Part shown: positions 4,909-19,511 of the stretch, piece after piece
How the letters are laid out: each line of letters begins with the position of its first letter
Numbering within the stretch: the first letter of the stretch is position 1
Origin: Paraglaciecola marina
GTDB lineage: Bacteria; Pseudomonadota; Gammaproteobacteria; Enterobacterales; Alteromonadaceae
Reading direction: 5' to 3'
Assembly (NCBI RefSeq): GCF_004360155.1
Contig: NZ_SAIS01000001.1
Location: 310,001 to 374,000 of the forward strand
Length of the DNA: 64,000 bases
Position numbers and translations under genes: made by a program
The notes under the pieces: generated by a model
Told to the model about the DNA's origin: nothing
Seen by the model: only the letters and a program-made list of their open reading frames with translations
The model's database searches: none

Positions 4909-5273
4909 TTGTTACTCTTTGTTTTTATTGGTAAGTAATCTTAGCAGTTTGGCACAGGAGATTAATAGGCAATTGATAATGATTTTTATCTAAAATATAA
5001 CTTTCTTTTGATTATCATTGGTATGTTTAATAATTATTTATGTGAATATTATTGCATTAGTCTCTGGTTACTTTATCTGTCATCTGAGGGTAGACTAACA
5101 AAATAGTTGGAATCAAAACTCAAGAAACACGTTCTTTAGTAATTAAGAATAAGGTGTTAATTATTATCGCCTACGAACTTAGGGCCTAGATGGGCTTTCG
5201 ATCGTGATAAGAACTTTATAATAGTTTAATAATCAGGTTATAGAGCCCATACATTTTTATATTGGATATTATT
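4909..5273. promoter_or_regulatory. AT-rich intergenic region with Fur-box-like sequences upstream of gshA
   Basis: No coding frame was found in these 365 bases between the divergent Hpt and gshA genes. Two Fur-like elements are visible: GATAATGATTTTTATC at 4975-4990 and TGATTATCATT at 5009-5019, the latter matching 11 contiguous positions of the GATAATGAT-type consensus. The second overlaps a candidate -35 TTGATT (5008-5013), spaced 17 bp from TAATTAT (5031-5037), pointing toward gshA. The transcript would have a leader of about 230 bases. Within it ATGGGCT (5189-5195) can pair with AGCCCAT (5244-5250). Confidence 0.5.
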
Positions 5274-6857
5274 TTGCAAGTAAATGAAACATCTTTTTCT
5301 GCGCGTTTAGCAACTTTACAGAATCCGTCAATCATGAAGACTTTGACGGGTATAAAACATGGGGTAGAGCGAGAAACCTTGCGTATTAACCCAAATGGAG
5401 GCCTTGCACAAACACCACACCAAGAATCCTTAGGTGCTGCTTTAACCCATGAGTTTATAACAACGGACTTTTCTGAGTCATTGTTAGAATTTATCACCCC
5501 CCCAGAAACGTCTATTGATAAAACAATTGGCCAATTGAAAGATGTTCACAAGTTTGTAATGACAAACATTGGCGAAGAGCGCTTATGGCCGATGAGCATG
5601 CCTTGTTTTATTGAGAACCAAGAAGCTATTCCTATTGCTAATTATGGAACGTCTAATGTTGGCAAAATGAAGAGTTTGTATCGGGTTGGATTAAAAAACC
5701 GCTATGGCAGTATGATGCAAGCTATATCAGGAGTGCACTTTAATTTCTCCTTGCCTGATGAGTTTTGGGGGAAATGGCTGGCTGATGACTCTAATGTAAA
5801 AGCAGATAAAGACTCTATTTCTTCAGCTTACTTTGGGCTAATACGGAATTATCGACGATTTTGTTGGGTAATTCCCTATTTATATGGGGCTTCACCTGCT
5901 TTATGTCGTTCGTTTATCAAAGGTAAAGAAACGGGTTTACCATTCAAAACATTAGGTAAAGGTACTTACTATTTACCTTATGCTACCTCTCTTAGAATGA
6001 GTGACTTAGGTTATACCAATAGTGCTCAATCAGGGTTGAATATTTGCTACAACAAAGTAGATAGCTATATAGCTTCATTACGGGCAGCAATCAATCAGCC
6101 TTCTGAAAACTATGAGATGTTTGCGGGTAAAAAAGATGGAAAATACCAGCAACTTAATAGCAATGTATTACAGATTGAAAATGAGCTTTATTCTCCTATT
6201 AGGCCCAAGCAACCTACTCGTTCGTTGGAAAAACCAACCGATGCATTGGATGAAAGAGGCGTCAGTTATATTGAAGTTAGAGCACTAGACGTTAATCCGT
6301 TTTCAGCCATAGGGATAGAGCGTAATCAATTTTATTTTTTAGATGTGTTCTTACTTTATTGTTTAGTTAAGCCTAGTAGTTTCATGAATTCAGATGAATA
6401 TCATGAAACAGAAGTAAACTTAAATGCGGTAGTTGAGCGAGGCCGTGACCCCAAACTAAGACTAACTAATGCTTCAGAGCCAGTTGAAATGAAAACTTGG
6501 GCATTGCAGCTATTTTCTGAAATGCAAGAAATCGCCAATATTTTAGATCAAGCAAATGATACCCAAGATTATTCCTTGGCATTAGCAGCTGAAAAACAAA
6601 AGATACTGGATCCAAGGTTAACACCATCGGCTCGTATCCTAGAACATCTAATAAATGAAAATATCGATAATGGAAACTTAGGTTTAAGCTTAGCAGAGTC
6701 TTTTAAAAGTGAGTTGATTAGCTCGGATTACGAGTTTATGAATGCCGAAGATTTAGCTACACATGCGGCATTGTCAATAGAAAAACAGCGAGTAATAGAA
6801 CAGCAGGAACAAGTGTCTTTTGATGATTTTCTAGTAAGTTATTTTTCTGATAAATAA
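5274..6857 (+). CDS. gshA: Glutamate-cysteine ligase (proteobacterial type)
   Basis: The enzyme joins glutamate and cysteine, using ATP, in the first step of glutathione synthesis. The sequence runs parallel to Escherichia coli GshA: GVERETLRI, ALTHEFITTDFSESLLEFITPP, WPMSMPCFI, NYGTSNVGKMKSLYR, KNRYGSMMQAISGVHFNFSLP, and YIEVRALDVNPFSAIGI. The length of 527 aa is usual. No ATG lies at the expected N-terminus. I prefer the TTG at 5274, which has GGA seven bases upstream; another in-frame TTG at 5262 lacks a ribosome-binding site, and the first ATG at 5334 would trim conserved sequence length. A stem-loop follows the stop. Confidence 0.93.
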   Translation: MQVNETSFSARLATLQNPSIMKTLTGIKHGVERETLRINPNGGLAQTPHQESLGAALTHEFITTDFSESLLEFITPPETSIDKTIGQLKDVHKFVMTNIGEERLWPMSMPCFIENQEAIPIANYGTSNVGKMKSLYRVGLKNRYGSMMQAISGVHFNFSLPDEFWGKWLADDSNVKADKDSISSAYFGLIRNYRRFCWVIPYLYGASPALCRSFIKGKETGLPFKTLGKGTYYLPYATSLRMSDLGYTNSAQSGLNICYNKVDSYIASLRAAINQPSENYEMFAGKKDGKYQQLNSNVLQIENELYSPIRPKQPTRSLEKPTDALDERGVSYIEVRALDVNPFSAIGIERNQFYFLDVFLLYCLVKPSSFMNSDEYHETEVNLNAVVERGRDPKLRLTNASEPVEMKTWALQLFSEMQEIANILDQANDTQDYSLALAAEKQKILDPRLTPSARILEHLINENIDNGNLGLSLAESFKSELISSDYEFMNAEDLATHAALSIEKQRVIEQQEQVSFDDFLVSYFSDK

Positions 6858-6864
6858 ATTTGGC

Positions 6865-6897
6865 GAAAAAAAAAGCCTGACTAATGTCAGGCTTAAA
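6865..6897. terminator. Stem-loop after gshA with the T run on the minus-strand side
   Basis: AAGCCTGAC (6873-6881), loop TAAT, and GTCAGGCTT (6886-6894) form a perfect 9-bp stem. The A run lies upstream of it on the plus strand, so the classic U-tract would be formed by minus-strand transcription. On the plus strand only two T residues follow. Confidence 0.6.
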
Positions 6898-6950
6898 GTC
6901 ACTACTAGGGAAACACACAATAATAAAAACACGTTAATTAAGAGTAGACG

Positions 6951-7595
6951 ATGATACAAAAGTTCACCAAAAAAATTTTATTGTTAAAAAACGGAATGAG
7001 CTTTTTTCTGATTGTTTTATTTTTGAATGGATGTGCCAATACCCCTCCTAAAAATATAAGTAATATTTGTGAGATCTTTTTTGAAAAGCGAGATTGGTAT
7101 GATGTTGCTGCGGATATGAATAAAAAGTGGGGGGTTCCTATCCACGTGCCTATGTCTATGATGTATCAGGAAAGTTCATTTAAAGCCAAAGCCCGACCAC
7201 CCAAAGATTACATTTTTTTTGGCTTAATACCTTGGGGGAGAGTTAGCTCAGCTTATGGTTACTCTCAAGCTAAAACACCTACCTGGTCTGACTATAAACG
7301 GGAGACAAAAAACTCTTGGGCTGATAGAACTGACTTTGATGACGCTATGGATTTTATGGGGTGGTTCATTACAAAAACTCATAAAATGAATGGAATCTCA
7401 AAATGGGATGCTGAATTACAATATTTGAATTATCACGAAGGCTGGGGTGGCTATAAAAGGGGGAGTTACAATAGCAAGCCTTGGTTAAAGAAAGTTGCTA
7501 AAACAGTGGAGGCTAGATCATTGAGGTACGCCACACAACTTAAAACCTGTGAAGAAGAGTTATCTAGAGGATGGTTTTGGGGGTTGTTTGATTAA
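6951..7595 (+). CDS. Lipoprotein with lysozyme-like (transglycosylase SLT-type) domain
   Basis: The 214-aa product begins with a lysine-rich stretch, a hydrophobic segment and a lipobox LNGC with the modified cysteine at residue 28, so it should be an anchored lipoprotein. The mature part has MSMMYQESSFKAKARPP, which resembles the catalytic-Glu region of lytic transglycosylases, followed by YGYSQAKTPTW and a region ending YLNYHEGWGGYKRG that fits the same lysozyme-like fold. It would cut or bind peptidoglycan in the periplasm. The ribosome-binding site is weak (AAGAGTAG before the ATG). The gene stands alone between gshA and the H-NOX operon. Confidence 0.7.
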   Translation: MIQKFTKKILLLKNGMSFFLIVLFLNGCANTPPKNISNICEIFFEKRDWYDVAADMNKKWGVPIHVPMSMMYQESSFKAKARPPKDYIFFGLIPWGRVSSAYGYSQAKTPTWSDYKRETKNSWADRTDFDDAMDFMGWFITKTHKMNGISKWDAELQYLNYHEGWGGYKRGSYNSKPWLKKVAKTVEARSLRYATQLKTCEEELSRGWFWGLFD

Positions 7596-7899
7596 CTTAA
7601 GTTGGATATAGGGTGCCGCGCATTGTTCAAATTCCATTTATAGATGTAAAGTTAAGAAAATATGTAAATTGATTGTTTTTCCTTAGTTAGCCCATACTGC
7701 AACAATAAGTTTGGTTTGAAATTCAAGCTGTTTGTGTGAATTGCGACCTGAAAATATACCTATGTGTTGGTTTATATAACTTTGTAAAATATAAGTTAAG
7801 ATAAAGTCGGGAGTGGTTCAGGTAATACTCTTAAACTTGTACCTGATTGTTAAGTGGATAATCTGTTCATGGCGAATTGGAGGCGAATTGGAGGCGAAT
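7596..7899 (+). promoter_or_regulatory. Upstream region of the H-NOX operon
   Basis: No gene is visible in these 304 bases. A candidate sigma-70 promoter, TTGGTT (7767-7772), 17-bp spacer, TATAAG (7790-7795), would start transcription about 100 bases before the H-NOX start. Just before the ATG an 11-bp unit GGCGAATTGGA is repeated about 2.6 times (7871-7899), giving two GGAGG Shine-Dalgarno sequences, of which the second is correctly spaced. Confidence 0.4.
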
Positions 7900-8442
7900 A
7901 TGAAAGGCATAGTTTTTGTAAAGTTTAACGAGTTTATTGAGGAAGTGTGGGGCGATGAGTTTTGGGATGAATTATTAAGTGAAGCTAACCTTGCAAGTGA
8001 AGGTGTCTATACTACGGTTGCTACCTATGATGATGAAGAGCTCTTTACATTAGTTGGGCTAGTTGTTGTTAAAAAAGGCATAAGTGCCAAAGATGCACAG
8101 TTTGCTTTCGGTAAGTGGGTTTTTAAAGAATTATATAACCTTGCACCTCCTGGGGCACATGACTTTAAAGATGTGTTTGAATTTTTACATGCAGTACAAG
8201 ACTTTATACATGTAGAAGTGAAAAAATTGAATCCTGATGCTTTACTTCCAGAGTTTGAATTCTTATCCGAAACATCAAACGTATTAACTTTTAAATACCT
8301 ATCACCTCGCAAGCTTTGCTATTTCTGCGAAGGTATTATCCATGGCCTTGCAGAGCATACGGGGCAAGATATAAAGGTCTCCCAGCCTGAGTGTGAGCAT
8401 GAAGCCGGAGAACAGTGTGTTATAGAGGTTGAAAAAGTTTGA
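7900..8442 (+). CDS. hnoX: H-NOX haem-binding nitric oxide sensor
   Basis: This 180-aa cytosolic protein binds haem and senses NO. It begins MKGIVFVKFNEFIEEVWG like stand-alone bacterial H-NOX proteins. The proximal haem ligand is His104 in the context HAVQDFIHVEV, and the family's Y-x-S-x-R motif is present as YLSPR. A C-terminal cluster of Cys and His (LCYFCEG, PECEHEAGEQC) matches the zinc-binding region of proteobacterial H-NOX. The start is the ATG at 7900, with GGAGG five bases upstream; a longer frame from 7813 adds an unrelated N-terminus. The stop overlaps the start of the kinase gene by four bases, the usual H-NOX/kinase pairing. Confidence 0.95.
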   Translation: MKGIVFVKFNEFIEEVWGDEFWDELLSEANLASEGVYTTVATYDDEELFTLVGLVVVKKGISAKDAQFAFGKWVFKELYNLAPPGAHDFKDVFEFLHAVQDFIHVEVKKLNPDALLPEFEFLSETSNVLTFKYLSPRKLCYFCEGIIHGLAEHTGQDIKVSQPECEHEAGEQCVIEVEKV

Positions 8443-9956
8443 GTTCTACTGATAAACCAGTTTTAGAAGTTGATGAGTTAGAAAAAAGGGTTGCCGTGCT
8501 AGAGCGGAAGATAAGCCGAGAGAAAAAAGCGAGAAACATAGCGGAGAATAAGTTAGAACAGTACTCACTAGAAATTTATCAAACTAATGAGTCTTTAAAA
8601 AAAGCGTTAGCGTCATCTACGAAAAAACAAAAGGAGCTAGAATATTTAGGGCGTGCCTCTAGTTATGTGGGGTCAGAAATGAAACTCAACGAAATAATTG
8701 ACAATGTTGTTGAGCTTACAGGACGTTTTTGTGAGGCAGATTTCGGGTTTTATCTGGTTGCTAAAAAGGGAAACATCATACAGGAAGGACTTAACAAGGT
8801 TTGGTGTCTGAATAGGGGGTGGCAAGATAACGCTGTTTTAATAGAAGTTATTGGTAAACTCCTACCATTAGAAAATACAGAGTTATTAAACTCTTGGAAC
8901 GTTTTAGATATTGACTACTTTCCCAGCAACGCTGGACAAGCCCTTAAACAAGTTTGCTATACCAATTTTGCTCTCGCTGGCGGCAAAGTCGGTTGGTTGG
9001 CAATACTAAATAGCCATAGTGTTGTAGAGCCTGATGTTCTATCTGTACTCAATACAGCTAGAGAGCATTTGTTAAGTGGTATCAGCAGGCGGTTGACTGA
9101 TTTGCGTATTTTAAAACGAAACTTGCAACTTCAAGAATCCTTAGAAAAACTAGAGAATGCACGAAAGCAATTGATCCAGTCTGAAAAAATGGCTTCTCTA
9201 GGGCAGCTGGCTGCAGGGGTAGCCCATGAAATTAATAATCCTGTTGCTTTTATTCGCTCAAATATGGAGGTGCTTCAAGATTATTTAAAGGACTACAAGT
9301 TATTGCATGAAGATTTGAAAAAGATTACATACAGCAGTAAAACTTTAAGTACTGAGGTGTTTAAAGAGGCTTTTGAAAAAATTGATATAGATTACATAGA
9401 TGAAGACTCAGTCGAATTACTCCAATCAAATATTGAAGGTTTAATAAGAGTTAAGGATATAGTTGATAACCTTAAGAGCTTTTCCCATTCAGGTAGTGAG
9501 GAGTTAACACCTATATATATTGCTGAGTGTGTTGATGCCGCATTAAAAGTAACCGGTAATGCTTTCAAGTACGAGCATCAAATTGATAATCAGGTAAGCG
9601 AGTTGAATCTTACTGTTCTTGGGAATCTCGGCCAATTACAACAAGTGTTTGTTAACTTGTTTGTTAATGCCGCTTATGCGATGGAAGCAGGGGGGGAATT
9701 GACTATTTCTCATTCCAGTTCAGAGGAAAAGGTTGTCATTCATATAACTGATACAGGCCAAGGCATGGACAAAGAAACAGTTAGTCAACTATTTACTCCG
9801 TTTTTTACCACTAAGCCCGTCGGTGTAGGAACCGGGTTGGGCTTGTCTGTATCTTACGCTATTCTCGAAGCTCACAATGCACAAGTCACAGTAGATTCTG
9901 AGGTTGGGGTTGGGACTACTTTTAATTTGTCATTTCCTACAATAACTCAGCAGTAG
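8439..9956 (+). CDS. hnoK: H-NOX-associated cytosolic sensor histidine kinase
   Basis: The 505-aa protein has an N-terminal coiled coil (about residues 8-70), a GAF-like sensory region (about 75-215), a second helix leading into the dimerisation domain with phosphoacceptor His263 in GVAHEINNP, and an HATPase domain with NLFVNAAYAM, DTGQGMD and GTGLGLS boxes. No membrane segment is present. Translation starts at a TTG (8439) that overlaps the H-NOX stop, so the pair is coupled. In the Shewanella system, NO-bound H-NOX inhibits autophosphorylation of HnoK, which feeds several response regulators. The gene ends convergently, overlapping the HnoD-like gene by 20 bases. Confidence 0.93.
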   Translation: MSSTDKPVLEVDELEKRVAVLERKISREKKARNIAENKLEQYSLEIYQTNESLKKALASSTKKQKELEYLGRASSYVGSEMKLNEIIDNVVELTGRFCEADFGFYLVAKKGNIIQEGLNKVWCLNRGWQDNAVLIEVIGKLLPLENTELLNSWNVLDIDYFPSNAGQALKQVCYTNFALAGGKVGWLAILNSHSVVEPDVLSVLNTAREHLLSGISRRLTDLRILKRNLQLQESLEKLENARKQLIQSEKMASLGQLAAGVAHEINNPVAFIRSNMEVLQDYLKDYKLLHEDLKKITYSSKTLSTEVFKEAFEKIDIDYIDEDSVELLQSNIEGLIRVKDIVDNLKSFSHSGSEELTPIYIAECVDAALKVTGNAFKYEHQIDNQVSELNLTVLGNLGQLQQVFVNLFVNAAYAMEAGGELTISHSSSEEKVVIHITDTGQGMDKETVSQLFTPFFTTKPVGVGTGLGLSVSYAILEAHNAQVTVDSEVGVGTTFNLSFPTITQQ

Positions 9957-11244
9957 CGGTTTGACTATCTTCAACTATTAAAGACAAAGGCTCGGTTTGA
10001 CTTTTTTCGAATTGTACCAACTTGGTTATGGTTTTTTCAGTAAAAACGTGACCTTTAGGTAAGACTAAAATATGAGCATCATTAAATATATTACTTTTTA
10101 ATGTCATACCAACTTTTAGTGCATGTGAAGGGATAGGCTTTTCGATAAACTCATCAGAGGCAATGTTAGGGGTATTTAATAAGACTTCTAAAATTTGAGG
10201 GTCATATCGCGTACCTAAAAACTTCTTCATACTAAGTCTAACTTCCGTCTCTTCCATTTTTTCTGGTGTAATACGACCCATAGAGTATCGCCAATAATCT
10301 CTTGCCACAGATAGTATCTTTGCCCCAATTGGAATTTGAGTGTCAACCAGTTGGTTGGGGCCACTGCCATTAAAATACTCAAATTGACAAGTAATGATAT
10401 CTGATACTTCTTGCAGGTGAGTGGCTGGACTAAGAATTAACTGGGCTATCTTTGTCTGGTCAATATATTCTTTTTTCTGGTTGAAATTAAGTTCGTCAAA
10501 AGGTTTACTGTAGATGGCTGTATCTAAACCAAGCAAGCCAATTTCACACAGCAAGGCTGCAAACGTTACGTTTTCTACCTCTTCTTTCGATAGCTTAAGG
10601 TGCTCCGCTAAATTTTTTGCCAACAAACTAACACTATTAGCAAAACTTCCACTTAGGTTAGGGTTGATACTAATTAAATTGTATAGCACTTTCTGGGTGG
10701 CTTCGTTGTTATGCTCAATACGTTTCAAGGCTAGTTGTATTTGCTTCGTCCTTAATTGAATCTTACCTTCTAAGTTTTGATTCTGCTCTTTGAGTTTCGC
10801 ATTTTGTAGCTTAATCAGTTTCTCTAATTTAGCATTTTCGTTTTTAAGCCTAACGTTAGACAAACCTTCATCTATGGCTTGAATTATTTCTTGGTTTTCC
10901 CACGGTTTTTGAAGGTATCGGTGTATTTTTCCTTTATTAACAGCCTCTATTGTGGATTCCATATCAGAGTAACCTGTTAACAGAATGCGGTAAGTCTCTG
11001 GATACTTAGTAGCGACTTTTTCTAATAAAGCTGCGCCTGACATCTCTGGCATTTTCATGTCAGATATAATTAATTGGACTTTGTGCTTTTCCATTAATTC
11101 TAAAGCTATCGAACCACTTTCAGCTAATAATAGTTGAAAGTTTTGCTTGTATAGTAAGCGTTTCATCGACTTAAGAATATTTAACTCATCATCCACACAT
11201 AGCACAGTCATAGGCGGTGTTTCTATTGCTTTATCATTGCTCAT
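9937..11244 (-). CDS. hnoD: Response regulator with degenerate HD-GYP domain (HnoD-like)
   Basis: An N-terminal receiver domain (residues 12-130, phosphoacceptor Asp62 in ISDMKMPEMSG) is joined by a coiled coil (about 135-185) to an HD-GYP-like domain. The metal-binding and signature residues of that domain are gone: the HD pair reads CE (AALLCEIGLLGLD), the HHE position reads CQFE, and the GYP position reads SGPNQ. It should therefore not hydrolyse c-di-GMP. In Shewanella oneidensis, HnoD is exactly such a degenerate HD-GYP regulator and acts as an allosteric inhibitor of the EAL protein HnoB; I infer the same role here. It overlaps the upstream kinase gene by 11 bases. Confidence 0.85.
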   Translation of the reverse strand: MSNDKAIETPPMTVLCVDDELNILKSMKRLLYKQNFQLLLAESGSIALELMEKHKVQLIISDMKMPEMSGAALLEKVATKYPETYRILLTGYSDMESTIEAVNKGKIHRYLQKPWENQEIIQAIDEGLSNVRLKNENAKLEKLIKLQNAKLKEQNQNLEGKIQLRTKQIQLALKRIEHNNEATQKVLYNLISINPNLSGSFANSVSLLAKNLAEHLKLSKEEVENVTFAALLCEIGLLGLDTAIYSKPFDELNFNQKKEYIDQTKIAQLILSPATHLQEVSDIITCQFEYFNGSGPNQLVDTQIPIGAKILSVARDYWRYSMGRITPEKMEETEVRLSMKKFLGTRYDPQILEVLLNTPNIASDEFIEKPIPSHALKVGMTLKSNIFNDAHILVLPKGHVFTEKTITKLVQFEKSQTEPLSLIVEDSQTATAELL

Positions 11245-12898
11245 TGGATGTCTCCATCAGTTGTTTATTTTTGTCATCTGTTGGCAGTATGATGTTAAAA
11301 CAACTGCCCTTATTGAGTTCACTATCAACAGTTAACTCGCCTGCATGGTCTTGTATTATTCCGTAAGAAATTGAGAGTCCTAAACCGGTCCCTACGCCTT
11401 CTTTTTTAGTTGTAAAAAAAGGGTCGAATAGTTTGTCTATGTGTTTGGGTTCAATACCTGAGCCATTGTCCGCAATAGATACTATTACATAATTATTTTT
11501 ATAAAGTGAGGTGACTGTTATCTTGCCATTCTCATGAATTGCTTGCCCTGCATTAATCAATAAGTTTGTAAGGACCTGTATGATTTTCCCCACGTTAATG
11601 AAGACTTTCGGAACAGAGTTCAATTGTTTTTCAATAGTGCAATGGTATTTGAGTTGACCGCTCACCATGTTTAGGGTCGTGTTTAAGCATGTGTTTATAT
11701 CAAACCACTGTTTTTCATCTGAGCCAGCCCGTGAAAACTGCTTTAAATCCTTAACTATACTTTTAACTCTTGCTAGCCCCTGAATTGACTCATCTATAAG
11801 GTCCTGAGTATCTTGGTTTATATAAGTGAGCTCCGCATCTTGCACAGACGTTAGCAGTTTATTTATTTGTAATACATGTGTTTCAGAGATTGAGTTAGGT
11901 GAAAGAGTCAATAATTGCTCACTTATAAGTCGGTATGTTTCAATATAGTCTTTAAGTGTATTTAAATTGCTGGTAACAAACGCAATAGGGTTGTTGATTT
12001 CGTGTGCAACGCCTGCGGCGAGTAATCCTACTGATGCCATTTTTTCAGCTTGAATAAGTTGCTGTTGGGCTTCGTGAAGTTCTTGGTTGGACTTTTCTAA
12101 CTGATTGTTGCGTTCATAAAGTAATGATGTACGTTCAATCACTTTTCCTTCTAACGTACGATTGAGTGTTTCAAGTTCATATTGATATTTTTCTTTACGT
12201 TTATGTTCCCTTTCTAAACTTGTCACTAGTTTATTGAAAGCCTCTGCAACTTCACTCAATTCATCATTGCCGGTTACCTCTATCTTAGAGTGTGAATATT
12301 CACCACCAGTAACATTTTTAGAGATGCTTCTTGCGGCTTGCCTTAAACCTTGCAATTTTTTGGTTAGATAAGTTCCTAACACGAAAGAAAACAGTGAAAC
12401 TAAAAACATTTCAATTAAGGCAATACCACTGGTCCATTTTTGAATTTTTTGAATTGACTGTTCTATGCTACTAATATCAATACCTAGTTGTACTTGACCG
12501 TATATATGTTCTGCTTCGCTAATTAATGTGTAGCTATCAAATATACCATCAGAGACTAAATCTAACTCTTCGTCTACACTGAATTTAGAGGATAGTAGTT
12601 TTGCTCTCCCAGCTTGTGCCAGTATTTGATTATCACTGTTTATTACTCTCACGTAACCAATATCAGGATTTTTTATTAGTTCGTTGCAATAAACCTCGAG
12701 TGAAGCCAGATCATAGGATAACACTGCGTCTTTTGCTGTGGTTGCAAATAGGGTGGTGATAGTCGACGCTCGCTTTACTAGCCCATCGTTCAATGTCGTA
12801 CGCATAAAATCAACGGCTGTTAATACTAGAAGTAGTAATAAACTTGCTTCAATAACGGCAATACCTAAGATTGTTTTGTTACGTAATGACAGTTGCAT
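11234..12898 (-). CDS. Membrane sensor histidine kinase, paired with a PhnD-like protein
   Basis: The 554-aa protein has a first membrane segment at about residues 9-32, a periplasmic domain of about 120 residues, a second membrane segment at about 157-180, a HAMP domain (to about 235), a coiled coil, the phosphoacceptor His299 in GVAHEINNP, and an HATPase domain with DNGSGIE and GTGLGLS. The dimerisation and catalytic parts closely resemble those of the H-NOX kinase at 8439 (EKMAS-G-LAAGVAHEINNP-AF in both), which suggests that they share response-regulator partners. The PhnD-like gene lies 11 bases upstream and the HnoD-like gene overlaps downstream, so the order sensor-kinase-regulator forms one unit. 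Confidence 0.92.
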   Translation of the reverse strand: MQLSLRNKTILGIAVIEASLLLLLVLTAVDFMRTTLNDGLVKRASTITTLFATTAKDAVLSYDLASLEVYCNELIKNPDIGYVRVINSDNQILAQAGRAKLLSSKFSVDEELDLVSDGIFDSYTLISEAEHIYGQVQLGIDISSIEQSIQKIQKWTSGIALIEMFLVSLFSFVLGTYLTKKLQGLRQAARSISKNVTGGEYSHSKIEVTGNDELSEVAEAFNKLVTSLEREHKRKEKYQYELETLNRTLEGKVIERTSLLYERNNQLEKSNQELHEAQQQLIQAEKMASVGLLAAGVAHEINNPIAFVTSNLNTLKDYIETYRLISEQLLTLSPNSISETHVLQINKLLTSVQDAELTYINQDTQDLIDESIQGLARVKSIVKDLKQFSRAGSDEKQWFDINTCLNTTLNMVSGQLKYHCTIEKQLNSVPKVFINVGKIIQVLTNLLINAGQAIHENGKITVTSLYKNNYVIVSIADNGSGIEPKHIDKLFDPFFTTKKEGVGTGLGLSISYGIIQDHAGELTVDSELNKGSCFNIILPTDDKNKQLMETSNEQ

Positions 12899-12909
12899 TA
12901 TCAGTCCAT

Positions 12910-13737
12910 TTATTTCGGTACATTTGTACCCATAAGTGTTTCAAGTTTTAAGGATCTTACATCGTCCCAGTCATCATTTGTTGCGGTATCAATACCCTTA
13001 AAATTAATAGACTTTAGTAACTCTTTACCTTGAATATTATTGTTTAACTCCAATAGCGCACTGAGTATTTTTTGCTTCGATGTGTCGCTAACTTTTGGGT
13101 TAACGGCAATTGCATGAGGGGTATAGCCTTGGGTTTCCCAAATAGTGATTAGTTGCGATTTTACACCTTCAGACATATTGTTTAAGGTGCGTTTTATTCC
13201 CCCTCCTGCTGGGAAAAAGCCTTTTGATACGTTGAGATAGACCGAGTCATGGGAAGAGACATAGCTAGGCGTAAATGAAATTCCATGCCTTTTTAATTCG
13301 GCTATGGGTAAAATGCTTGCTGCAAATGCTGCAGGAGCAGGAAAAGCTAAATGAGCTCCCTCCAAATCTTCAATTGTATTGATATTGCTACCAACTTTAG
13401 CAACGATCACACCTTTAATTGTTTTTCCCTGTTGTTTCGCGATGGCCAAATATCCTGATTGTTTATTAAATACTACATAATGATAGGGATTCATGTAGGC
13501 GATATCATAAGCACCCTCTGCTAGCCTTTGCTCGAAAGTTGGAATGTCTCGTGCTGTAATAAACTTAACGTTAATGCCACTCGTTTCGCTAATTCGTTGT
13601 AAAATGGGTGTCCATAAAGTAGCGAGTCGTTTTGCAGATTGCTGAGGTACAATACCAAATGTCAATGTCTCTCCATGAGCTATGGTGACAAGGGGGCTGC
13701 TAACTAATAAGCTAAAAAGTAGTAAAATTTTCAACAT
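12910..13737 (-). CDS. PhnD-like periplasmic binding protein (kinase-linked)
   Basis: A signal peptide covers about residues 1-22 (ending TIAHGE). The rest is a PhnD/phosphonate-phosphite-type substrate-binding fold: LTFGIVPQQSAKRLATLWTPIL, YDIAYMNPYHYVVF, the LAFPAPAAFAASILP ligand loop, and HDSVYLNVSKGFFPAGGGIKRTL. No ABC permease or ATPase gene is nearby; instead it is 11 bases upstream of a membrane histidine kinase. I infer that it acts as a periplasmic ligand sensor presenting a signal to that kinase rather than as a transporter subunit. The ligand is unknown; PhnD-like sensors are known for phosphonates, phosphite and other small anions. Confidence 0.85.
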   Translation of the reverse strand: MLKILLLFSLLVSSPLVTIAHGETLTFGIVPQQSAKRLATLWTPILQRISETSGINVKFITARDIPTFEQRLAEGAYDIAYMNPYHYVVFNKQSGYLAIAKQQGKTIKGVIVAKVGSNINTIEDLEGAHLAFPAPAAFAASILPIAELKRHGISFTPSYVSSHDSVYLNVSKGFFPAGGGIKRTLNNMSEGVKSQLITIWETQGYTPHAIAVNPKVSDTSKQKILSALLELNNNIQGKELLKSINFKGIDTATNDDWDDVRSLKLETLMGTNVPK

Positions 13738-13761
13738 ATTGGTACCTCTTTTAAGAAATAG

Positions 13762-14325
13762 TTATTGGGTGAGCTGATTTACAATACTTAATAAGTGTTC
13801 TTTATCAAAAGGCTTAGATATTGCTGCATTGGCGCCGAGTGTTATGGCTTTATCTAGGCTGTCTTGATTAAGTGCAGAAATCACTAATATTTTTAAATGA
13901 CTAAACTCTTCTTGTTTTCTTAGGTGCTGTAATAATTCAAAACCATTTAGGCCAGGCATACTTAAATCTAAAGTCATTAATGCGGGTTGTCGCTGCATTA
14001 ATTTACTACCCGCTAAAAAGCCATTAACTGCTGTATCACATTCAAAACCAGCATTTTTCAAAACACGTTTAATGGCACTCGCCATATTTTCATCATCGTC
14101 AACAACTAAAATCGTTTTGTTATCTGGTAAGAAGTCTTCAGGTATAGGCATGTTATTCTCTTTGAGAAATATCAAAAAGTCTTCAACTGTTACTCGGTTA
14201 TTACCTCTACCTGGTAGTTTGTAACCTTTTAAACTACCTTTATCTATCCATCGAATGACTGTTCGCAAATTGACGTCGCAATATTGCGCTATGTCACCTG
14301 TTGTTAGTGATTTAGCCTTGGTCAT
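13762..14325 (-). CDS. hnoC: HTH-receiver transcriptional regulator (HnoC-like)
   Basis: The order of domains is inverted compared with ordinary response regulators. An excisionase/MerR-like helix-turn-helix comes first (residues 7-55, TGDIAQYCDVNLRTVIRWIDKG), followed by a receiver domain (70-187) with the acidic pair DDD at 76-78, phosphoacceptor Asp120 in TLDLSMPG, and SKPF with the conserved Lys. Shewanella HnoC is a receiver-HTH repressor whose binding is relieved by phosphorylation, and it controls the hno genes. By position and architecture this is the equivalent. It heads the minus-strand operon, 24 bases upstream of the PhnD-like gene, and shares a divergent promoter region with the OMP-hnoB genes. 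Confidence 0.82.
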   Translation of the reverse strand: MTKAKSLTTGDIAQYCDVNLRTVIRWIDKGSLKGYKLPGRGNNRVTVEDFLIFLKENNMPIPEDFLPDNKTILVVDDDENMASAIKRVLKNAGFECDTAVNGFLAGSKLMQRQPALMTLDLSMPGLNGFELLQHLRKQEEFSHLKILVISALNQDSLDKAITLGANAAISKPFDKEHLLSIVNQLTQ

Positions 14326-14366
14326 GAATACTACTCCTAAATTTTATTTGATAATTATAACATAAC

Positions 14367-14415
14367 GTATAATTGAGACATATATGACTAAAGTATAATA
14401 TACGACATTTGTGAC
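14367..14415. promoter_or_regulatory. Imperfect direct repeat, candidate HnoC operator
   Basis: In the 153-base divergent region, a 22-base element at 14367-14388 (GTATAATT, then GAGACATATATGAC) recurs as a 23-base element at 14393-14415 (GTATAATA, then TACGACATTTGTGAC). The start-to-start distance is 26 bp. The cores GACATATATGAC and GACATTTGTGAC are 27 bp apart. The position between the HnoC-like gene and the divergent operon suits an autoregulatory operator; this is inference. Confidence 0.45.
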
Positions 14416-14478
14416 AATTGCTATATTTGCGTCATCCTATAAAACTCCTTCAATACAACGGTTGAGACGGTTAGCGAA

Positions 14479-15510
14479 ATGAAGAAACTTTATCTATTGA
14501 TTGCTTTAAGTTTTTTGTGTGTACAAAGTACACAAGCCATAGAGCTGTCTACCAATGTACTGTTGCGGTATGAAAATGAAACGGGTCAAACTAACTTAGC
14601 ACCAAGAAAAAGGTTACGAATGATTGCTTCTGTAGGCGCAAACTACAGACTAAATAATAATGTTATATTCATGAGTCAGGTAAGAACTGGCTTAAAAAAT
14701 AATCAGAACGTTCCTGCTATAACCTTACATCAAATTACGAATAACCCCAGTGGCGACAAAGATATATATGTGTCACGAGCATTTACCAAATTTACTTTTG
14801 ATAAAGTGTCTGTAATTGCAGGGAAAATTCCGTGGAAGTCCAAACAAGTAACTGATTTATTTTGGGATAGGCACTTAAACCCAATTGGGGTGCACTTTGA
14901 TTATGATTTTGCAGAAAACCAGCGCTTAACCTTTGCCACCTTTAAACCTTTAGATGGCGCATCAAGTACAGTCGGCCATATGTCACTTATTCAATATTCG
15001 AGGCAATTATCTACTCACCTAGGAAAAATCACTTTATCGCCCTGGCTAGTTGATTACAGAGGCGAGGCTGGCGCTAGTTACGCTACCAAAGATACGCAGT
15101 TTAATAATCAGTTTATCCGCTTTTCTGGCGCTATGACGTTCAATGATTTTCAAATCGGAGCCGACTTGGGATGGTCAACGAAGCGCGTACCAAATTCTGT
15201 ATATGAGCAATTTTCTAAGCAAAGGTTCAGCTATGTATTCAAGTTTAGTAAAGGCGCATTACAGCATGTAGGTAGTTATTTAACGGAACTCAAATATTTA
15301 CATGTTGAGCGCTTTTCTGTGGTGACTGAATTTGCACAAAATGCGTCTAGTCGATTCGCTACAGGCAACTATAAAGGATGGGATTTGCGGATTCGACATA
15401 GACTGACAAATAACCTTTGGATTGGTTCTCGGCTTTCGAAAACCAAGCGTTTAGTTGGATCGCCTGAGCAGAGTGTGCGATTCAGAATAGAAACAAAACT
15501 TTCATTTTAG
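14479..15510 (+). CDS. Putative outer-membrane beta-barrel protein
   Basis: I do not recognise a named family. The 343-aa product has a clear signal peptide (residues 1-20, ending STQA). The mature sequence alternates polar and hydrophobic or aromatic residues in short strands and ends in Phe (ETKLSF), as outer-membrane barrels do. Segments such as FTKFTFDKVSVIAGKIPWK and HLNPIGVHFDYDF resemble porin strands and loops. It lies 24 bases upstream of the REC-EAL gene and is almost certainly co-transcribed with it. It might be a porin linked to the ligand seen by the PhnD-like protein, but the sequence does not show this. Confidence 0.7.
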   Translation: MKKLYLLIALSFLCVQSTQAIELSTNVLLRYENETGQTNLAPRKRLRMIASVGANYRLNNNVIFMSQVRTGLKNNQNVPAITLHQITNNPSGDKDIYVSRAFTKFTFDKVSVIAGKIPWKSKQVTDLFWDRHLNPIGVHFDYDFAENQRLTFATFKPLDGASSTVGHMSLIQYSRQLSTHLGKITLSPWLVDYRGEAGASYATKDTQFNNQFIRFSGAMTFNDFQIGADLGWSTKRVPNSVYEQFSKQRFSYVFKFSKGALQHVGSYLTELKYLHVERFSVVTEFAQNASSRFATGNYKGWDLRIRHRLTNNLWIGSRLSKTKRLVGSPEQSVRFRIETKLSF

Positions 15511-15534
15511 TATTCATTTTTTGGAGCATTTTTG

Positions 15535-17289
15535 ATGTTAAATATGTCACAACAACCAGCCATATATAACCCTGTGTTACAAGACCGTAGCCTACTTGTT
15601 GTAGATGATGAAGAAAATATATTAAAGGCAATACAGCGTAGCTTTAAACATACCAAATACCGAGTATATACTGCTAGTAGTGCTGAAGAAGCTCTAAAGA
15701 TGCTGGAATTACATGATGTACAAGTTGTTCTTTCTGACTTTAGAATGCCAGAAGTTAATGGTGGAGCTTTAGTGAAAGATGTTCAGCTACAACACCCAGA
15801 TATTGTTTCTATGATTTTAACTGGACAAGCTGACTTCCACGCTGCTGTCGATGTTCTGAACTCAGGAGCAGCCTACAAATTTTTGTCCAAGCCATGGAAC
15901 AATAAAGAGTTGATTGAAGAAGTTGACCAAGCTTTTGATGAATATCAACAGCGTTTTATAGCTAAGTCAAAAGAACATATAACTCAGCAATATGTAAAGC
16001 CTGAGCGTGTACTGTTTGACCGAGCAGCTGAACACTTATTGCTTCAGAATGAAAAGTTTGCTGTAGCTTCTATTATTGTATCGGACTTGTCTTTACTTGA
16101 TTGTTATTGGCAGCAGCATGAACCAAACACCTCCATCCTTAGTTCAGTTGAGAGTATTATTAGCACTTATTTATCACCAAGCTGTGAAGTCTTTGAGGTG
16201 GATGTTGATCAACTTCTTGTAATCATTCCCGAAAGTGAATGTAATGCTAATTTACATGATAGTTTAGTTGTCTTAGGCGAGGCTTTGTCTTTAACATGTG
16301 GGGTTGACAAATTACATCCTAAGCTTGCTAGTCAGCTAGCTTATGCTGAATCTCCGTTTGAGGGCTCTAATATTGCTCAGTTAGTGCATTCAATTAGAAA
16401 CATATCTAACAGTGATTACGTTGAGCATTTGACTAAAGGTCAAAACTCAGATGTCATTAGGTTAGATGCCGCGCACTTGGCCCAAAAGAAACGTAAACAA
16501 ACTATTCAAAACAGTATTCAACAGGCTATTAGTTCCAATCAATTTTGCTTGTATTTCCAACCTAAAGTGAATTTAAGTAATGGAATCGTTGAGCGAGCTG
16601 AGGTGCTTATGCGCTGGGAGCATTCATCTTTAGGTTGGGTGTCACCTGAGGAGTTTATTAGTCTTAGTGAGTTAGATGGGCAAATTGAAAAAATAGGTAC
16701 TTGGCTATTTAAAAAGAGTATTGCGGATTTAGTAACCTTGCGTAAACAATATGGTGATAAGGTGAGTCTGGCAATAAATGTTTCGCCTCGACAGCTACAA
16801 ACTAGCCAGATAGTAGAAGAGTTTACTTATTTGCTCCAAGAAACAGGCCTTTCCCCTGAGTGTATTGAACTTGAGATCACTGAAGGCTGTGTAATTGATG
16901 ACCTTGAACAGACAGGAAAAATTCTTTGGGAACTCAAGGATTTAGGTTTACGAATTGCTATAGATGATTTTGGGTCTGGTTATGCTTCATTCGCTTATTT
17001 GTCTAAGTTACCAGTGGATGTACTTAAGTTGGACAAGGTTTTAATCGATGATTTAGAAACAAATAACGATATGACTGATATGCTAAAAAGCATAATAGAT
17101 TTATGTGGACGTATGCGAATAGAAGTCGTGGCTGAAGGAGTAGAAAACGAGAGACAAGTTAATATGCTTAAGGAACTTGGATGTCATTATATTCAAGGTT
17201 ATGTGTATAGTCGTCCAATTACTAGAGAAAATTTTGAAAAAATATTAATAAATCAGCCTTTCATATACCCAAAAGAAGCTCACCCATAG
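15535..17289 (+). CDS. hnoB: REC-EAL cyclic-di-GMP phosphodiesterase (HnoB-like)
   Basis: An N-terminal receiver domain (about residues 18-135; Asp68 in LSDFRMPE, Lys in LSKPW) is followed by a linker region that may be a vestigial GGDEF domain (about 160-310) and an EAL domain (about 325-575). The EAL domain keeps the catalytic set: EVLMRWEH in place of EAL-R, NVSPRQL, LEITEG, IDDFGSGYAS, LKLDK, VAEGVE and QGY. It should hydrolyse c-di-GMP, in Shewanella in a phosphorylation-stimulated way under HnoK and HnoD control. I chose the ATG at 15535, eight bases after GGAG; a TTG lies directly before it at 15532. Confidence 0.92.
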   Translation: MLNMSQQPAIYNPVLQDRSLLVVDDEENILKAIQRSFKHTKYRVYTASSAEEALKMLELHDVQVVLSDFRMPEVNGGALVKDVQLQHPDIVSMILTGQADFHAAVDVLNSGAAYKFLSKPWNNKELIEEVDQAFDEYQQRFIAKSKEHITQQYVKPERVLFDRAAEHLLLQNEKFAVASIIVSDLSLLDCYWQQHEPNTSILSSVESIISTYLSPSCEVFEVDVDQLLVIIPESECNANLHDSLVVLGEALSLTCGVDKLHPKLASQLAYAESPFEGSNIAQLVHSIRNISNSDYVEHLTKGQNSDVIRLDAAHLAQKKRKQTIQNSIQQAISSNQFCLYFQPKVNLSNGIVERAEVLMRWEHSSLGWVSPEEFISLSELDGQIEKIGTWLFKKSIADLVTLRKQYGDKVSLAINVSPRQLQTSQIVEEFTYLLQETGLSPECIELEITEGCVIDDLEQTGKILWELKDLGLRIAIDDFGSGYASFAYLSKLPVDVLKLDKVLIDDLETNNDMTDMLKSIIDLCGRMRIEVVAEGVENERQVNMLKELGCHYIQGYVYSRPITRENFEKILINQPFIYPKEAHP

Positions 17290-17309
17290 GCTAGTAAAAG
17301 ACACTTGTT

Positions 17310-17471
17310 TTAGGCGTCTGATATTGGTTGAACGGGTTCTATAGTTTCCGCTATTAATTTGGCACGCTCTGCTTTACTTATGTATTTAGCTTTGTTTTTA
17401 GGGGCGAGTTTTGCCTTTGCTTTTTTGGCTCTTGCTTTGAGGATTTGATTGCCTTTTTTACGACGATTCAT
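17310..17471 (-). CDS. DUF2986 family small basic protein
   Basis: A 53-residue frame starts with ATG at 17471 and has a strong AGGAAGG ribosome-binding site seven bases upstream. It begins MNRRKKGNQILKARAKKAK and continues KLAPKNKAKYISKAERAKL. This Lys/Arg-rich pattern with the YISKAER element is that of the short DUF2986 proteins found in Shewanella, Vibrio and Alteromonas. The function is unknown; the charge suggests nucleic-acid or ribosome contact, which is a guess. It lies downstream of the DUF3087 gene on the same strand, 40 bases away, and may share its transcript. Confidence 0.75.
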   Translation of the reverse strand: MNRRKKGNQILKARAKKAKAKLAPKNKAKYISKAERAKLIAETIEPVQPISDA

Positions 17472-17511
17472 AGATACCTTCCTTTTTCATTATTTTTAAT
17501 TTATGAACAGC

Positions 17512-18018
17512 CTAAAACTGTTTTAAGATATCATCGCTGTAATTACTGATATCTAGGTTGACTTGGTACTGCTTGGCCAATTTATCTAGTTCCGCTTGAG
17601 CTATTGCGAGCTCTTCCATTACAATGGTGTTGTCGTCTAATTCCCATAATAAACGAGAGCCTGCATAACTATATTGCATGGCAAGTAACGCATCTATATT
17701 ACCTTCAGCCGCTGTCGACTTTAGCTTTAACATCTTTCTGTTTATTTTATTGAGTGCTTGTTTAAGCTCCCAGACATATACCACTTCAGTCATAAAGTCA
17801 TGGTTACGGTATCGATTGAGCATCCAAGCAATGATGACACCGCTGATTAATACCCCAAGTAAATTCCAGTGAAAATGGCTGCCATTGGCATCAGGGAATA
17901 ATGCGATAAGAATTTGGGAAATCCCTAAGCTTCCTATTATCAATCCACTTGCACACCCCGCAATGACAATATTTAGATGTTTACGGTAACGTACTTTATT
18001 AATTTTAATGAGTTGCAT
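17512..18018 (-). CDS. DUF3087 family inner-membrane protein
   Basis: The 168-aa protein begins MQLIKINKVRYRKHLN, has two membrane segments (about residues 18-42 and 53-70) and then a long cytosolic helical part with TEVVYVWELKQALNKINRKMLKLK and WELDDNTIVMEELAIAQAELD, the conserved core of DUF3087. No function is established for the family. The start is the ATG at 18018 with AGGT eight bases upstream. A longer frame to 18102 adds 28 residues absent from the family and runs into a palindrome that looks regulatory. Confidence 0.8.
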   Translation of the reverse strand: MQLIKINKVRYRKHLNIVIAGCASGLIIGSLGISQILIALFPDANGSHFHWNLLGVLISGVIIAWMLNRYRNHDFMTEVVYVWELKQALNKINRKMLKLKSTAAEGNIDALLAMQYSYAGSRLLWELDDNTIVMEELAIAQAELDKLAKQYQVNLDISNYSDDILKQF

Positions 18019-18094
18019 TAATGGACCTGTTTGAATTTTAAGTTCTATTTTACCCAAGGAGTAAACCGCAAATTTTTTGTTGGGAAATAAATAG

Positions 18095-18111
18095 CAGTAC
18101 ATATTGTACTG
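18095..18111. promoter_or_regulatory. 17-bp palindrome CAGTACATATTGTACTG
   Basis: Perfect 7-bp arms (CAGTACA and TGTACTG) flank TAT in the divergent region between the DUF3087 gene and the hydroxylase-like gene. The symmetry suits a dimeric regulator, but I cannot name one. Confidence 0.35.
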
Positions 18112-18263
18112 TGTTTGGAAGTTTTAGGCAGCTTGTATGTGAATTTCATGGTGCAAATCCAGTCTTTTTTACCATGTATTTGTTATCGTTGAATTCCAAT
18201 TCGTAACCACTTCATTAACCTCGTATAATCACGACAACTCTACTTAGCTGTGAATAAGAAGCA

Positions 18264-19160
18264 ATGCGACAACTCACTAGACATGATTTTTTCTTGTCAC
18301 TTCCACAGCCATTGTTTATTTTAGGCTGCGTTATATTAACGGCTAGTAGTTATACTTATGGCTGGATCAGCCCTAGTTTGGTGTTGGCTGTTATGATTTT
18401 ACTGCCTGTCCCTATGCTTTTAGTACTTGAGCGATTACTTCCAAAACGTAAAGAATGGTTGCTGAACTGGAAAGACTTAGCGAGCGATTTCTTTTGGCTG
18501 TTTGGAACTTATATTATTTGGCTACCTTTGTATGCTACCTATTACGACGCCCCAATGTCAGATGTTTTCAGAGCATTGAGTCTCTGGGTAGATTTCCCAT
18601 ATAAATTACAGGCGTACTCTGTAGTCGGGACTCTTATTATGGCTCTCATTGGCATTCTCGCCATAGAATTTATCGGGTATTGGGTACATCGTTTACAACA
18701 TAGATTCATGTTCTTATGGCGAATGCATGCTACTCACCACCACGTAACAAAAATGAGCGTAGCCCGCACCGATCGCACACACCCTCTTGAGTTTATAGGG
18801 TTAAACTTAGGCTCTATAATTGTATTAGCCTTTATGGGAGCCAGTGCCAATGTGGTGGCCGTGATATTAGTATTTAGAATGATATCCACTCATATCAATC
18901 ACGCTAATTTACCTTTGACTTCAGGCATCTATGGTTGGCTTTTTACAACCCCAGAAATGCATCGAGTACATCACTCTATTGATTATGATGAAAGTAATAG
19001 CAACTTCGGTTGTACTGTTATTTTCTGGGATAGGTTATTTGGTACCTTCTCAAGTAAGGAAAACATTGTAGTTGTTGGCAATGGCACTGGAAAAAGTTTG
19101 TCTTTATGGACCCAGTTAAGCTTGCCATTTTATTCAAATAAGGCGATTCGAAAATTGTAG
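18264..19160 (+). CDS. Sterol desaturase / fatty acid hydroxylase superfamily membrane protein
   Basis: The 298-aa protein has four or more membrane segments and the histidine clusters that hold the di-iron centre of this superfamily: HRLQH at about residue 143, HATHHH shortly after, HINHANLP, and HRVHHS near residue 236. It should use O2 to hydroxylate or desaturate a lipid-type substrate in the inner membrane. The substrate cannot be read from the sequence; bacterial members act on fatty acids, carotenoids, hopanoids and sphingolipid-like lipids. The gene is monocistronic. The start is the ATG at 18264, preceded by AAGAAGC. Confidence 0.85.
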   Translation: MRQLTRHDFFLSLPQPLFILGCVILTASSYTYGWISPSLVLAVMILLPVPMLLVLERLLPKRKEWLLNWKDLASDFFWLFGTYIIWLPLYATYYDAPMSDVFRALSLWVDFPYKLQAYSVVGTLIMALIGILAIEFIGYWVHRLQHRFMFLWRMHATHHHVTKMSVARTDRTHPLEFIGLNLGSIIVLAFMGASANVVAVILVFRMISTHINHANLPLTSGIYGWLFTTPEMHRVHHSIDYDESNSNFGCTVIFWDRLFGTFSSKENIVVVGNGTGKSLSLWTQLSLPFYSNKAIRKL

Positions 19161-19511
19161 AATATTACTTTTCTATAACTCTTAATGAAGGATTACCCCA
19201 ATTACCCGCCCATCCATAACCTTTGGATTCATCTACCTCTACTCAAGTTAGTTTGTAATGCTTAATATCATCACTTAATTTTAACTTAGAACACTTTGAC
19301 CGCTGACTGTTTTTTAACCTTGAATAGTCAGCTCCATTACCTTATTCTTTATTTTTATTGATCGTTCAATTAATAAAAATCCGAAGGTGTAAGCAAAGTT
19401 ATTCTTCGTCAGTCGTTAATAGACTCAGGAACTGTGCTTTGATTACAAGTAATTGTTATTAATAGCATTGGCAAAAAAGCAGGCTACACTGTCTGCATAG
19501 GGTAAATAGTA
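19161..19511 (+). promoter_or_regulatory. Intergenic region before the choline locus, with a BetI-type operator
   Basis: No gene is visible in these 351 bases. ATTGATCGTTCAAT at 19357-19370 has arms ATTGA/TCAAT around TCGT, and the flanks extend the symmetry by a few A/T positions. It matches the pattern of two further sites at 21993 and 22025 and resembles the Escherichia coli BetI operator core (ATTGAACGTCCAAT). It lies about 140 bases before the PHP-phosphoesterase gene. I did not find a convincing -35/-10 pair tied to it. Confidence 0.6.

What the first reader, a model, noticed from the sequence alone, without database searches (positions are those of the whole stretch)
7900..17289. Complete H-NOX/Hno c-di-GMP network gathered in one locus with a second kinase input
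Seen: H-NOX, cytosolic kinase, REC plus degenerate HD-GYP, HTH-REC and REC-EAL all within 9.4 kb, plus a second, membrane-bound histidine kinase coupled to a PhnD-like periplasmic protein. Known: in Shewanella oneidensis the H-NOX/HnoK pair is encoded apart from hnoB, hnoC and hnoD. Inference: the second kinase shares a near-identical phosphoacceptor region with HnoK, so two signals (NO inside, an unknown small anion outside) may converge on the same three regulators. I do not know of a described system with this second input.
Basis: partly seen in the sequence, partly recalled or inferred. Interest (0 to 1): 0.82.

Follow-up and report, generated by a model that had tools for sequence, protein, structure and literature searches.

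The report
Nitric-oxide biofilm network with second sensor
A marine bacterium keeps a nitric-oxide signalling set that probably controls biofilm behaviour in one gene cluster, together with a second sensor that reads something outside the inner membrane, and the same pairing recurs in related bacteria, which makes it a testable two-signal switch.

Summary
H-NOX and a soluble HnoK-type kinase run rightwards. Convergent to them is a tight operon: HTH-REC (HnoC type), PhnD-like periplasmic protein, membrane kinase, REC plus degenerate HD-GYP (HnoD type). Divergent from it run a porin and REC-EAL (HnoB type). In the genus, the membrane kinase occurs in 9 of 22 genomes, exactly those with HnoC. The operon stands at 37 of 64 HnoC genes examined in the family, mostly without H-NOX beside it; elsewhere NosP plus a kinase, or a soluble kinase, accompanies HnoC/HnoD. 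So PhnD-kinase is best read as the operon's own sensor: a third class of input to Hno regulators, after H-NOX and NosP. A candidate HnoC operator lies in the divergent promoter region.

The phosphoacceptor likeness is class-level: matched kinases are no more alike at specificity positions than shuffled ones. The 'small anion' is doubtful: both oxyanion-binding serines are alanine. A second kinase input (NosP) is already described in Shewanella, and H-NOX, kinase and regulator of a close relative were studied before. Phosphotransfer and ligand are untested.

The parts
7900..8442 (+). H-NOX, predicted heme NO sensor
   Evidence: PF07700 126 bits; YxSxR-like YLSPR and Cys/His cluster read directly (motif meaning recalled)
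8439..9956 (+). soluble histidine kinase, HnoK type, overlaps H-NOX by 4 bases
   Evidence: HisKA and HATPase_c; no membrane helix in a hydropathy scan
9937..11244 (-). HnoD type: REC plus degenerate HD-GYP; its end overlaps that of HnoK by 20 bases
   Evidence: Response_reg and HD_5; NCBIfam NF053512 'NosR family' 464 bits, cut-off 400; degenerate HD and GYP motifs
11234..12898 (-). membrane histidine kinase: two membrane helices, sCache-like periplasmic domain, HAMP, DHp, ATPase; overlaps the REC-HD gene by 11 bases
   Evidence: model with mean pLDDT 84; sCache_3_2 matched by 11 of 44 relatives
12910..13737 (-). PhnD-like periplasmic binding protein, 11 bases before the kinase
   Evidence: PF12974 199 bits; model with mean pLDDT 93; nearest solved folds PtxB, XAC2383, ArrX, PhnD
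13762..14325 (-). HnoC type: HTH_17 plus REC, first gene of the four-gene operon
   Evidence: 24 bases before PhnD
14403..14416 (+). candidate HnoC operator YGACATTTGYGACA, 0 mismatches
   Evidence: at most 1 mismatch in 37 of 63 distinct hnoC upstream regions, 0.2% in shuffles; conserved block 14385-14407
14479..15510 (+). porin-like outer-membrane protein, divergent from HnoC
   Evidence: Porin_5 33 bits, cut-off 22; same place in 7 further genomes of the genus
15532..17289 (+). HnoB type: REC plus EAL with intact catalytic signatures
   Evidence: relatives L101 and L104 show a GGDEF domain between REC and EAL

Best explanation
The cluster is a two-sensor c-di-GMP control hub. The operon hnoC-phnD-kinase-hnoD is the core, with hnoB driven from the divergent promoter behind a porin. 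A PhnD-like periplasmic protein binds an unknown ligand and docks on the sCache-like outer domain of the membrane kinase, changing its kinase/phosphatase balance. That kinase passes phosphate to HnoC and HnoD of its own operon and probably to HnoB. The neighbouring H-NOX/HnoK pair reports NO inside the cell to the same regulators. As in Shewanella, HnoB would break down c-di-GMP, HnoD restrain HnoB, and HnoC repress the divergent promoters until phosphorylated, so the PhnD-kinase gene pair would be under feedback by the regulator it feeds. Shown here: genes, order, conservation, co-inheritance, operator-like motif, folds. Inferred: docking, phosphotransfer, direction of each effect, ligand.
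For: Tight four-gene operon by coordinates: gaps of 24 and 11 bases and an 11-base overlap. No other receiver gene among frames of 90 aa or more in 5500-20500 except HnoB, HnoC and HnoD. In the genus 9 of 22 genomes have the membrane kinase and the same 9 have HnoC, while H-NOX is in 17. In 395 family genomes HnoC and PhnD co-occur in 42 (64 and 60 carriers, odds ratio 33), and 41 of those 42 also have H-NOX. PhnD plus kinase stand at 37 of 64 HnoC genes examined. Of 80 named PhnD loci, 76 have a kinase directly downstream (55 full-length, 18 hybrid or partial with the same sensor region, 3 other); H-NOX lies within about 10 kb in 21 and HnoC in 19; all 19 have the full-length kinase, none of the 21 with another kinase has HnoC. 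The H-NOX linkage changed at least 6 times on starred branches of the PhnD tree, 13 in all. Other sensors accompany HnoC/HnoD in other genera: FIST (NosP) plus kinase in 3 of 3 frames tested, soluble kinase in L256 and L295. Candidate operator in 37 of 63 hnoC upstream regions. HnoB and HnoD receivers are each other's best non-self match among the receivers of the genome loci held.
Against: No phosphotransfer data exist here. Matched kinases show no extra likeness at specificity positions (p 0.92), though slightly over 40 residues of the DHp region (0.576 against 0.563, p 0.018). HnoC's receiver shows no special likeness to those of HnoB and HnoD (best non-self 47.7 bits, unrelated receivers). 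Two further kinases of the genome have a near-identical H-box (HEINSPIGF..SN and HEINNPLSY..SN), so cross-talk could be wider or the class uninformative. In 59 of 80 named PhnD loci no H-NOX was found in the stretch held. The operator-like motif is not enriched genome-wide (6 hits against 13 for the reversed pattern) and none with up to 3 mismatches lies before H-NOX.
Confidence: 0.6

Rival explanations
1. Insulated wiring: the membrane kinase serves only HnoC and HnoD of its operon, and H-NOX/HnoK serves HnoB (and perhaps HnoD), so the signals meet only in part.
For: The operon hnoC-phnD-kinase-hnoD exists without REC-EAL nearby in 16 of 37 such loci (13 without porin, 3 with). HnoC's receiver differs from those of HnoB and HnoD.
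Against: HnoB and HnoD receivers are close to each other (90-91 bits), so a kinase that reads HnoD should read HnoB. In the window HnoB is divergent from the same intergenic region.
Confidence: 0.25
2. Passenger: PhnD and kinase merely sit in the cluster and drive another receiver elsewhere.
For: Most PhnD-kinase pairs of the 80 named loci have neither HnoC (61 of 80) nor H-NOX (59 of 80) in the stretch held; 18 have hybrid or partial kinases.
Against: Operon structure, all-or-none co-inheritance with HnoC in the genus, repeated association with REC-HD (37 of 80) and HnoC.
Confidence: 0.1
3. The PhnD-like protein senses a phosphonate- or phosphite-like small anion, so the second signal is phosphorus supply.
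For: Pfam Phosphonate-bd family, and fold nearest to PtxB, ArrX and PhnD. His163, the counterpart of the anion-binding His, is kept in 81 of 81.
Against: The Ser-x-Ser that holds the oxyanion in PhnD, PtxB, AioX and ArrX is Ala137-Phe138-Ala139 here: Ala in 80, Phe in 81, Ala 76 or Gly 5 of 81. No Tyr stands at the second Tyr position. Scores for the PhnD and PhnD/PtxB families are under their cut-offs (85 of 261, 94 of 112 bits).
Confidence: 0.15

Closest known systems
H-NOX/HnoK-HnoB/HnoC/HnoD network of Shewanella oneidensis
   Same: Same five kinds of parts by domain and motif; HnoB active-type EAL, HnoD degenerate HD-GYP, HnoC HTH-REC.
   Different: All parts are in one cluster here (scattered in S. 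oneidensis: H-NOX and kinase are SO2144/SO2145; place of hnoB-D recalled), with an added PhnD-kinase pair and a porin.
NosP and its kinase (HnoS, name recalled) in Shewanella oneidensis, Nisbett et al. 2019
   Same: A described second input into the same network (title seen in a reference list); NosP-type proteins beside HnoC/HnoD in other genera.
   Different: NosP is a FIST-domain NO sensor; here the second sensor is periplasmic, with another fold and ligand. The only FIST protein found in the window's genome lies on another contig, with GGDEF proteins on both sides.
Pseudoalteromonas atlantica PATL1532-1534 (Arora and Boon 2012)
   Same: H-NOX, kinase and regulator already studied. Genome G006, whose chromosome length equals that recalled for strain T6c (now Paraglaciecola sp. 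T6c), carries the eight-gene cluster.
   Different: From the table seen, only the first three genes are named; nothing seen there on PhnD, membrane kinase, HnoC, porin or REC-EAL.
AioX/AioS and ArrX/ArrS arsenic sensors
   Same: PhnD-like periplasmic receptor paired with a membrane kinase (passages of PMC5908839); similar fold.
   Different: Pocket serines, second Tyr and Cys106 not kept; AioR and ArrR are other kinds of regulators.
XAC2383-XAC2382 receptor-diguanylate cyclase pair of Xanthomonas citri
   Different: The output there is a GGDEF enzyme, here a histidine kinase and response regulators.

Membership tests
H-NOX/Hno network | H-NOX next to a soluble histidine kinase | tested here: met
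H-NOX/Hno network | REC-EAL regulator with intact EAL signatures (HnoB) | tested here: met
   motifs read directly, canon recalled
H-NOX/Hno network | REC regulator with degenerate HD-GYP (HnoD) | tested here: met
H-NOX/Hno network | HTH-REC regulator (HnoC) that binds its own promoter at an inverted repeat | tested here: inconclusive
   Domains met. Conserved motif upstream reads mainly as phased 9-base repeats; the published site was not seen.
H-NOX/Hno network | HnoK phosphorylates all three regulators, NO-H-NOX inhibits it | not testable with these tools
   biochemistry
PhnD transport protein (TIGR03431) | curated score cut-off | tested here: not met
   85.1 bits, cut-off 261.1
PhnD transport protein (TIGR03431) | ABC permease and ATPase genes beside it | tested here: not met
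   none among the ten neighbouring proteins scanned, 6951-18102
AioX/ArrX arsenic sensors | binding-protein gene next to a membrane histidine kinase gene | tested here: met
AioX/ArrX arsenic sensors | pocket residues Ser161, Ser163, Tyr131, Cys106 (AioX numbering) | tested here: not met
   both Ser positions are Ala or Gly in all but one residue of 81 proteins; no Tyr at 107; Cys106 judged, 89 columns only in part
NosP/HnoS input | FIST-domain protein in the cluster | tested here: not met
   none among the proteins scanned; the only FIST hit in the genome is on contig C2
XAC2383-XAC2382 pair | membrane GGDEF partner | tested here: not met
   partner is a HAMP histidine kinase

The most novel reading that the evidence does not exclude
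A PhnD-like periplasmic receptor with its own membrane kinase is a third, exchangeable class of sensor for the Hno c-di-GMP regulators, beside H-NOX and NosP, and in Alteromonas, Paraglaciecola and relatives it is the resident sensor of the hnoC-hnoD operon; it reads a ligand outside the known oxyanion set, so cells integrate NO with an unknown extracellular cue.
Probability: 0.5. Interest if true: 0.72.

Novelty: new variant of a known kind. Interest (0 to 1): 0.57.

Why it matters
How NO and other cues are combined in bacterial c-di-GMP control is open. Here both sensors and the three regulators lie in one small, conserved cluster, in a genus where the H-NOX half was already handled in the laboratory, so convergence of two kinases can be tested directly. 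If true, NO sensing is one of several interchangeable inputs to one regulator set, and a large family of PhnD-like receptors (404 relatives among the stretches scored, a capped list) has an output to look for.

Tried and rejected
Specificity-residue covariation between HnoK and membrane kinase: no signal, so the DHp argument was dropped as proof. One pair (L155/L157, divergent kinases of type NTQYxDN in both) looked like covariation but fits lineage as well and was not in the 22 pairs, because that membrane kinase was not scored full-length.

H-NOX promoter under the HnoC motif: no site with up to 3 mismatches before H-NOX. Genome-wide regulon of the motif: no enrichment. The sigma-70-like match 14373-14401 is one of 21 against 31.9 expected in shuffles and is not used as evidence.

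A published account of PhnD with H-NOX: no listed paper held 'H-NOX' together with the other terms (19 of 19 had zero H-NOX). The NO/Hno and PhnD/histidine-kinase searches were made, all in a library of open-licence PubMed Central papers, so absence elsewhere is not shown. The primary papers on the Hno network, HnoC, NosP in Shewanella and XAC2383 were not held.

No Rfam family in 5000-19000. A passing note of mine that the cluster of G005 is cut by its contig end was wrong: porin and REC-EAL are simply not beside it (L072, L163).

Distance rule: the count '76 of 80 with a kinase downstream' misses L159 and L172, whose kinase frame overlaps PhnD by more than my limit.
Full report
What is there. 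The window carries, in order, H-NOX and HnoK-type kinase on the + strand (7900-9956); REC-HD, membrane kinase, PhnD-like protein and HTH-REC on the - strand (9937-14325); porin and REC-EAL on the + strand (14479-17289). Gaps in the - strand operon are 24 and 11 bases, and kinase and REC-HD overlap by 11, so the four genes are very likely one transcript read from HnoC. The membrane kinase has two membrane helices, HAMP and kinase parts. Its outer domain is predicted with high confidence as an alpha/beta domain, and 11 of 44 relatives match sCache_3_2 and 5 CHASE8 at loose thresholds; the window's own sCache match is only 13.4 bits.

Where it comes from. The genus is Paraglaciecola by equal contig lengths: G014 with P. 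arctica A3R16, G008 with P. chathamensis S18K6. G006 has a single contig of 5,187,005 bases, the length I recall for Pseudoalteromonas atlantica T6c, now Paraglaciecola sp. T6c. If so, PATL1532-1534, already studied as H-NOX, kinase and regulator (table seen in passages of PMC8738867), are the first three genes of this very cluster.

Conservation. Seven further genus genomes have all eight genes in order; G005 has six (L163). Six others (G001, G003, G013, G016, G017, G020) have H-NOX and HnoK without the membrane kinase or HnoC; a REC-HD frame was seen beside them in five of the six (not in the G017 stretch, which is cut) and it is broken or partial in G001 and G016. In the genus, membrane kinase and HnoC coincide in 9 of 9 and are both absent in 13 of 13; H-NOX is in 17 of 22. 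In 395 genomes drawn from the family (three searches taken to have drawn the same genomes), HnoC is in 64, PhnD in 60, H-NOX in 174. HnoC with PhnD: 42 genomes, odds ratio 33; HnoC with H-NOX: 53, odds ratio 8; PhnD with H-NOX: 48, odds ratio 6.6 (genomes are related, so p-values are not independent). All but one of the 42 also have H-NOX.

The operon beyond the genus. Of 64 HnoC genes examined (the window's own and one fused frame left out), 37 have PhnD and full-length membrane kinase with REC-HD; 12 of those 37 also have H-NOX in the stretch, 25 do not. The remaining 27 lack PhnD. In three such loci tested out of a larger set, the frame between REC-HD and a 450-470 aa kinase is FIST/FIST_C, the NosP domains; in L256 and L295 a 315-316 aa soluble kinase stands between HnoC and REC-HD. 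So sensors seem to be exchanged around a stable HnoC/HnoD pair.

PhnD-kinase as a sensor module. 76 have a kinase directly downstream by my distance rule: 55 full-length, 18 hybrid or partial but sharing the sensor region, 3 other. H-NOX lies in the stretch in 21, HnoC in 19 (all with the full-length kinase), REC-HD in 37, REC-EAL in 16. At the family's H-NOX frequency about 0.2 of 80 stretches of 20 kb would hold one by chance (my rough arithmetic). On a tree of 81 PhnD proteins the H-NOX link needs 13 changes, at least 6 on starred branches, against 19.5 in shuffles: clustered, but gained or lost repeatedly. Named carriers include Neptuniibacter, Marinobacterium, Pontibacterium, Aliiglaciecola and Vibrio coralliilyticus. 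In V. coralliilyticus RE22 the set is on plasmid p337, typed mobilizable.

Operator. Intergenic regions between HnoC and porin share a block, and YGACATTTGYGACA, first seen by eye in part of these regions, occurs with at most 1 mismatch in 37 and at most 2 in 47 of 63 distinct regions upstream of HnoC, usually about 65-105 bases before the start codon, against 0.2% and 1.1% of dinucleotide-like shuffles. Shuffles do not remove relatedness, but genera with and without porin are included. The window copy is at 14403-14416, with weaker copies in 9-base phase at 14412 and 14421. HnoC as repressor released by phosphorylation is known for Shewanella (passage in PMC8738867); that it binds here is inference.

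Kinase specificity. HnoK and membrane kinase of the window share NNAFSN at six positions, unique among 29 H-box stretches from its genome (30 of 37 HisKA hits were fetched, at least one extracted stretch is not a kinase, and one held kinase, L006, was missed by the filter). But in 22 distinct pairs, window included, matched partners are not more alike than shuffled ones at seven positions (0.786 against 0.800); over 40 residues the difference is small (0.576 against 0.563, p 0.018). Both belong to one class; that is compatible with shared receivers and proves nothing more.

Verdict. The new element is the PhnD-kinase pair as a recurrent, operon-resident sensor of Hno regulators; I found no account of it. 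Of the papers, PMC8846402, PMC12329717, PMC8738867, PMC5908839, PMC9500659 and PMC10380989 were seen as passages only; PMC11113362, which says that many kinases activated by binding proteins are encoded beside them, as a listing with the start of its abstract.

Noticed in passing
G000:C1:652121-654327 (L004, L079): A receiver-only protein, a small protein that looks like the CheC-annotated one of the Vibrio plasmid, and a kinase whose H-box is of the same class (HEINSPIGFVYSN). The same kind of triad stands beside the H-NOX/PhnD cluster on Vibrio coralliilyticus plasmid p337 (L300); a possible third kinase of the network.
   Followed up: partly
G000:C2:368642-369169 (L179): The only FIST-domain protein found in the window's genome lies between two GGDEF proteins, a possible separate NosP-like sensor.
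   Followed up: partly
L051 (G001) and L057 (G016): In genomes that keep H-NOX/HnoK but lack HnoC, PhnD and membrane kinase, the REC-HD gene beside them is a fragment or split in two frames, as if decaying.
   Followed up: no
L300, NZ_CP031474.1 136161-155807: A plasmid typed as mobilizable carries H-NOX, PhnD, membrane kinase, Hpt, HD, EAL, a second kinase, CheC and HDOD genes together, so such sensor sets may move between species.
   Followed up: partly
window 14403-14434: The operator-like motif continues as weaker copies in 9-base phase (0, 3 and 3 mismatches), suggesting cooperative or multimeric binding.
   Followed up: no
window 5262-7595: gshA and an SLT-type lytic enzyme gene precede H-NOX also in several other genomes of the genus, so the cluster sits at a fixed place in part of the genus.
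   Followed up: no
L299 (G005:C17:5001-22000): A second HnoC with divergent REC-EAL and an HnoK-like kinase without PhnD, in a genome that also has the main operon.
   Followed up: no
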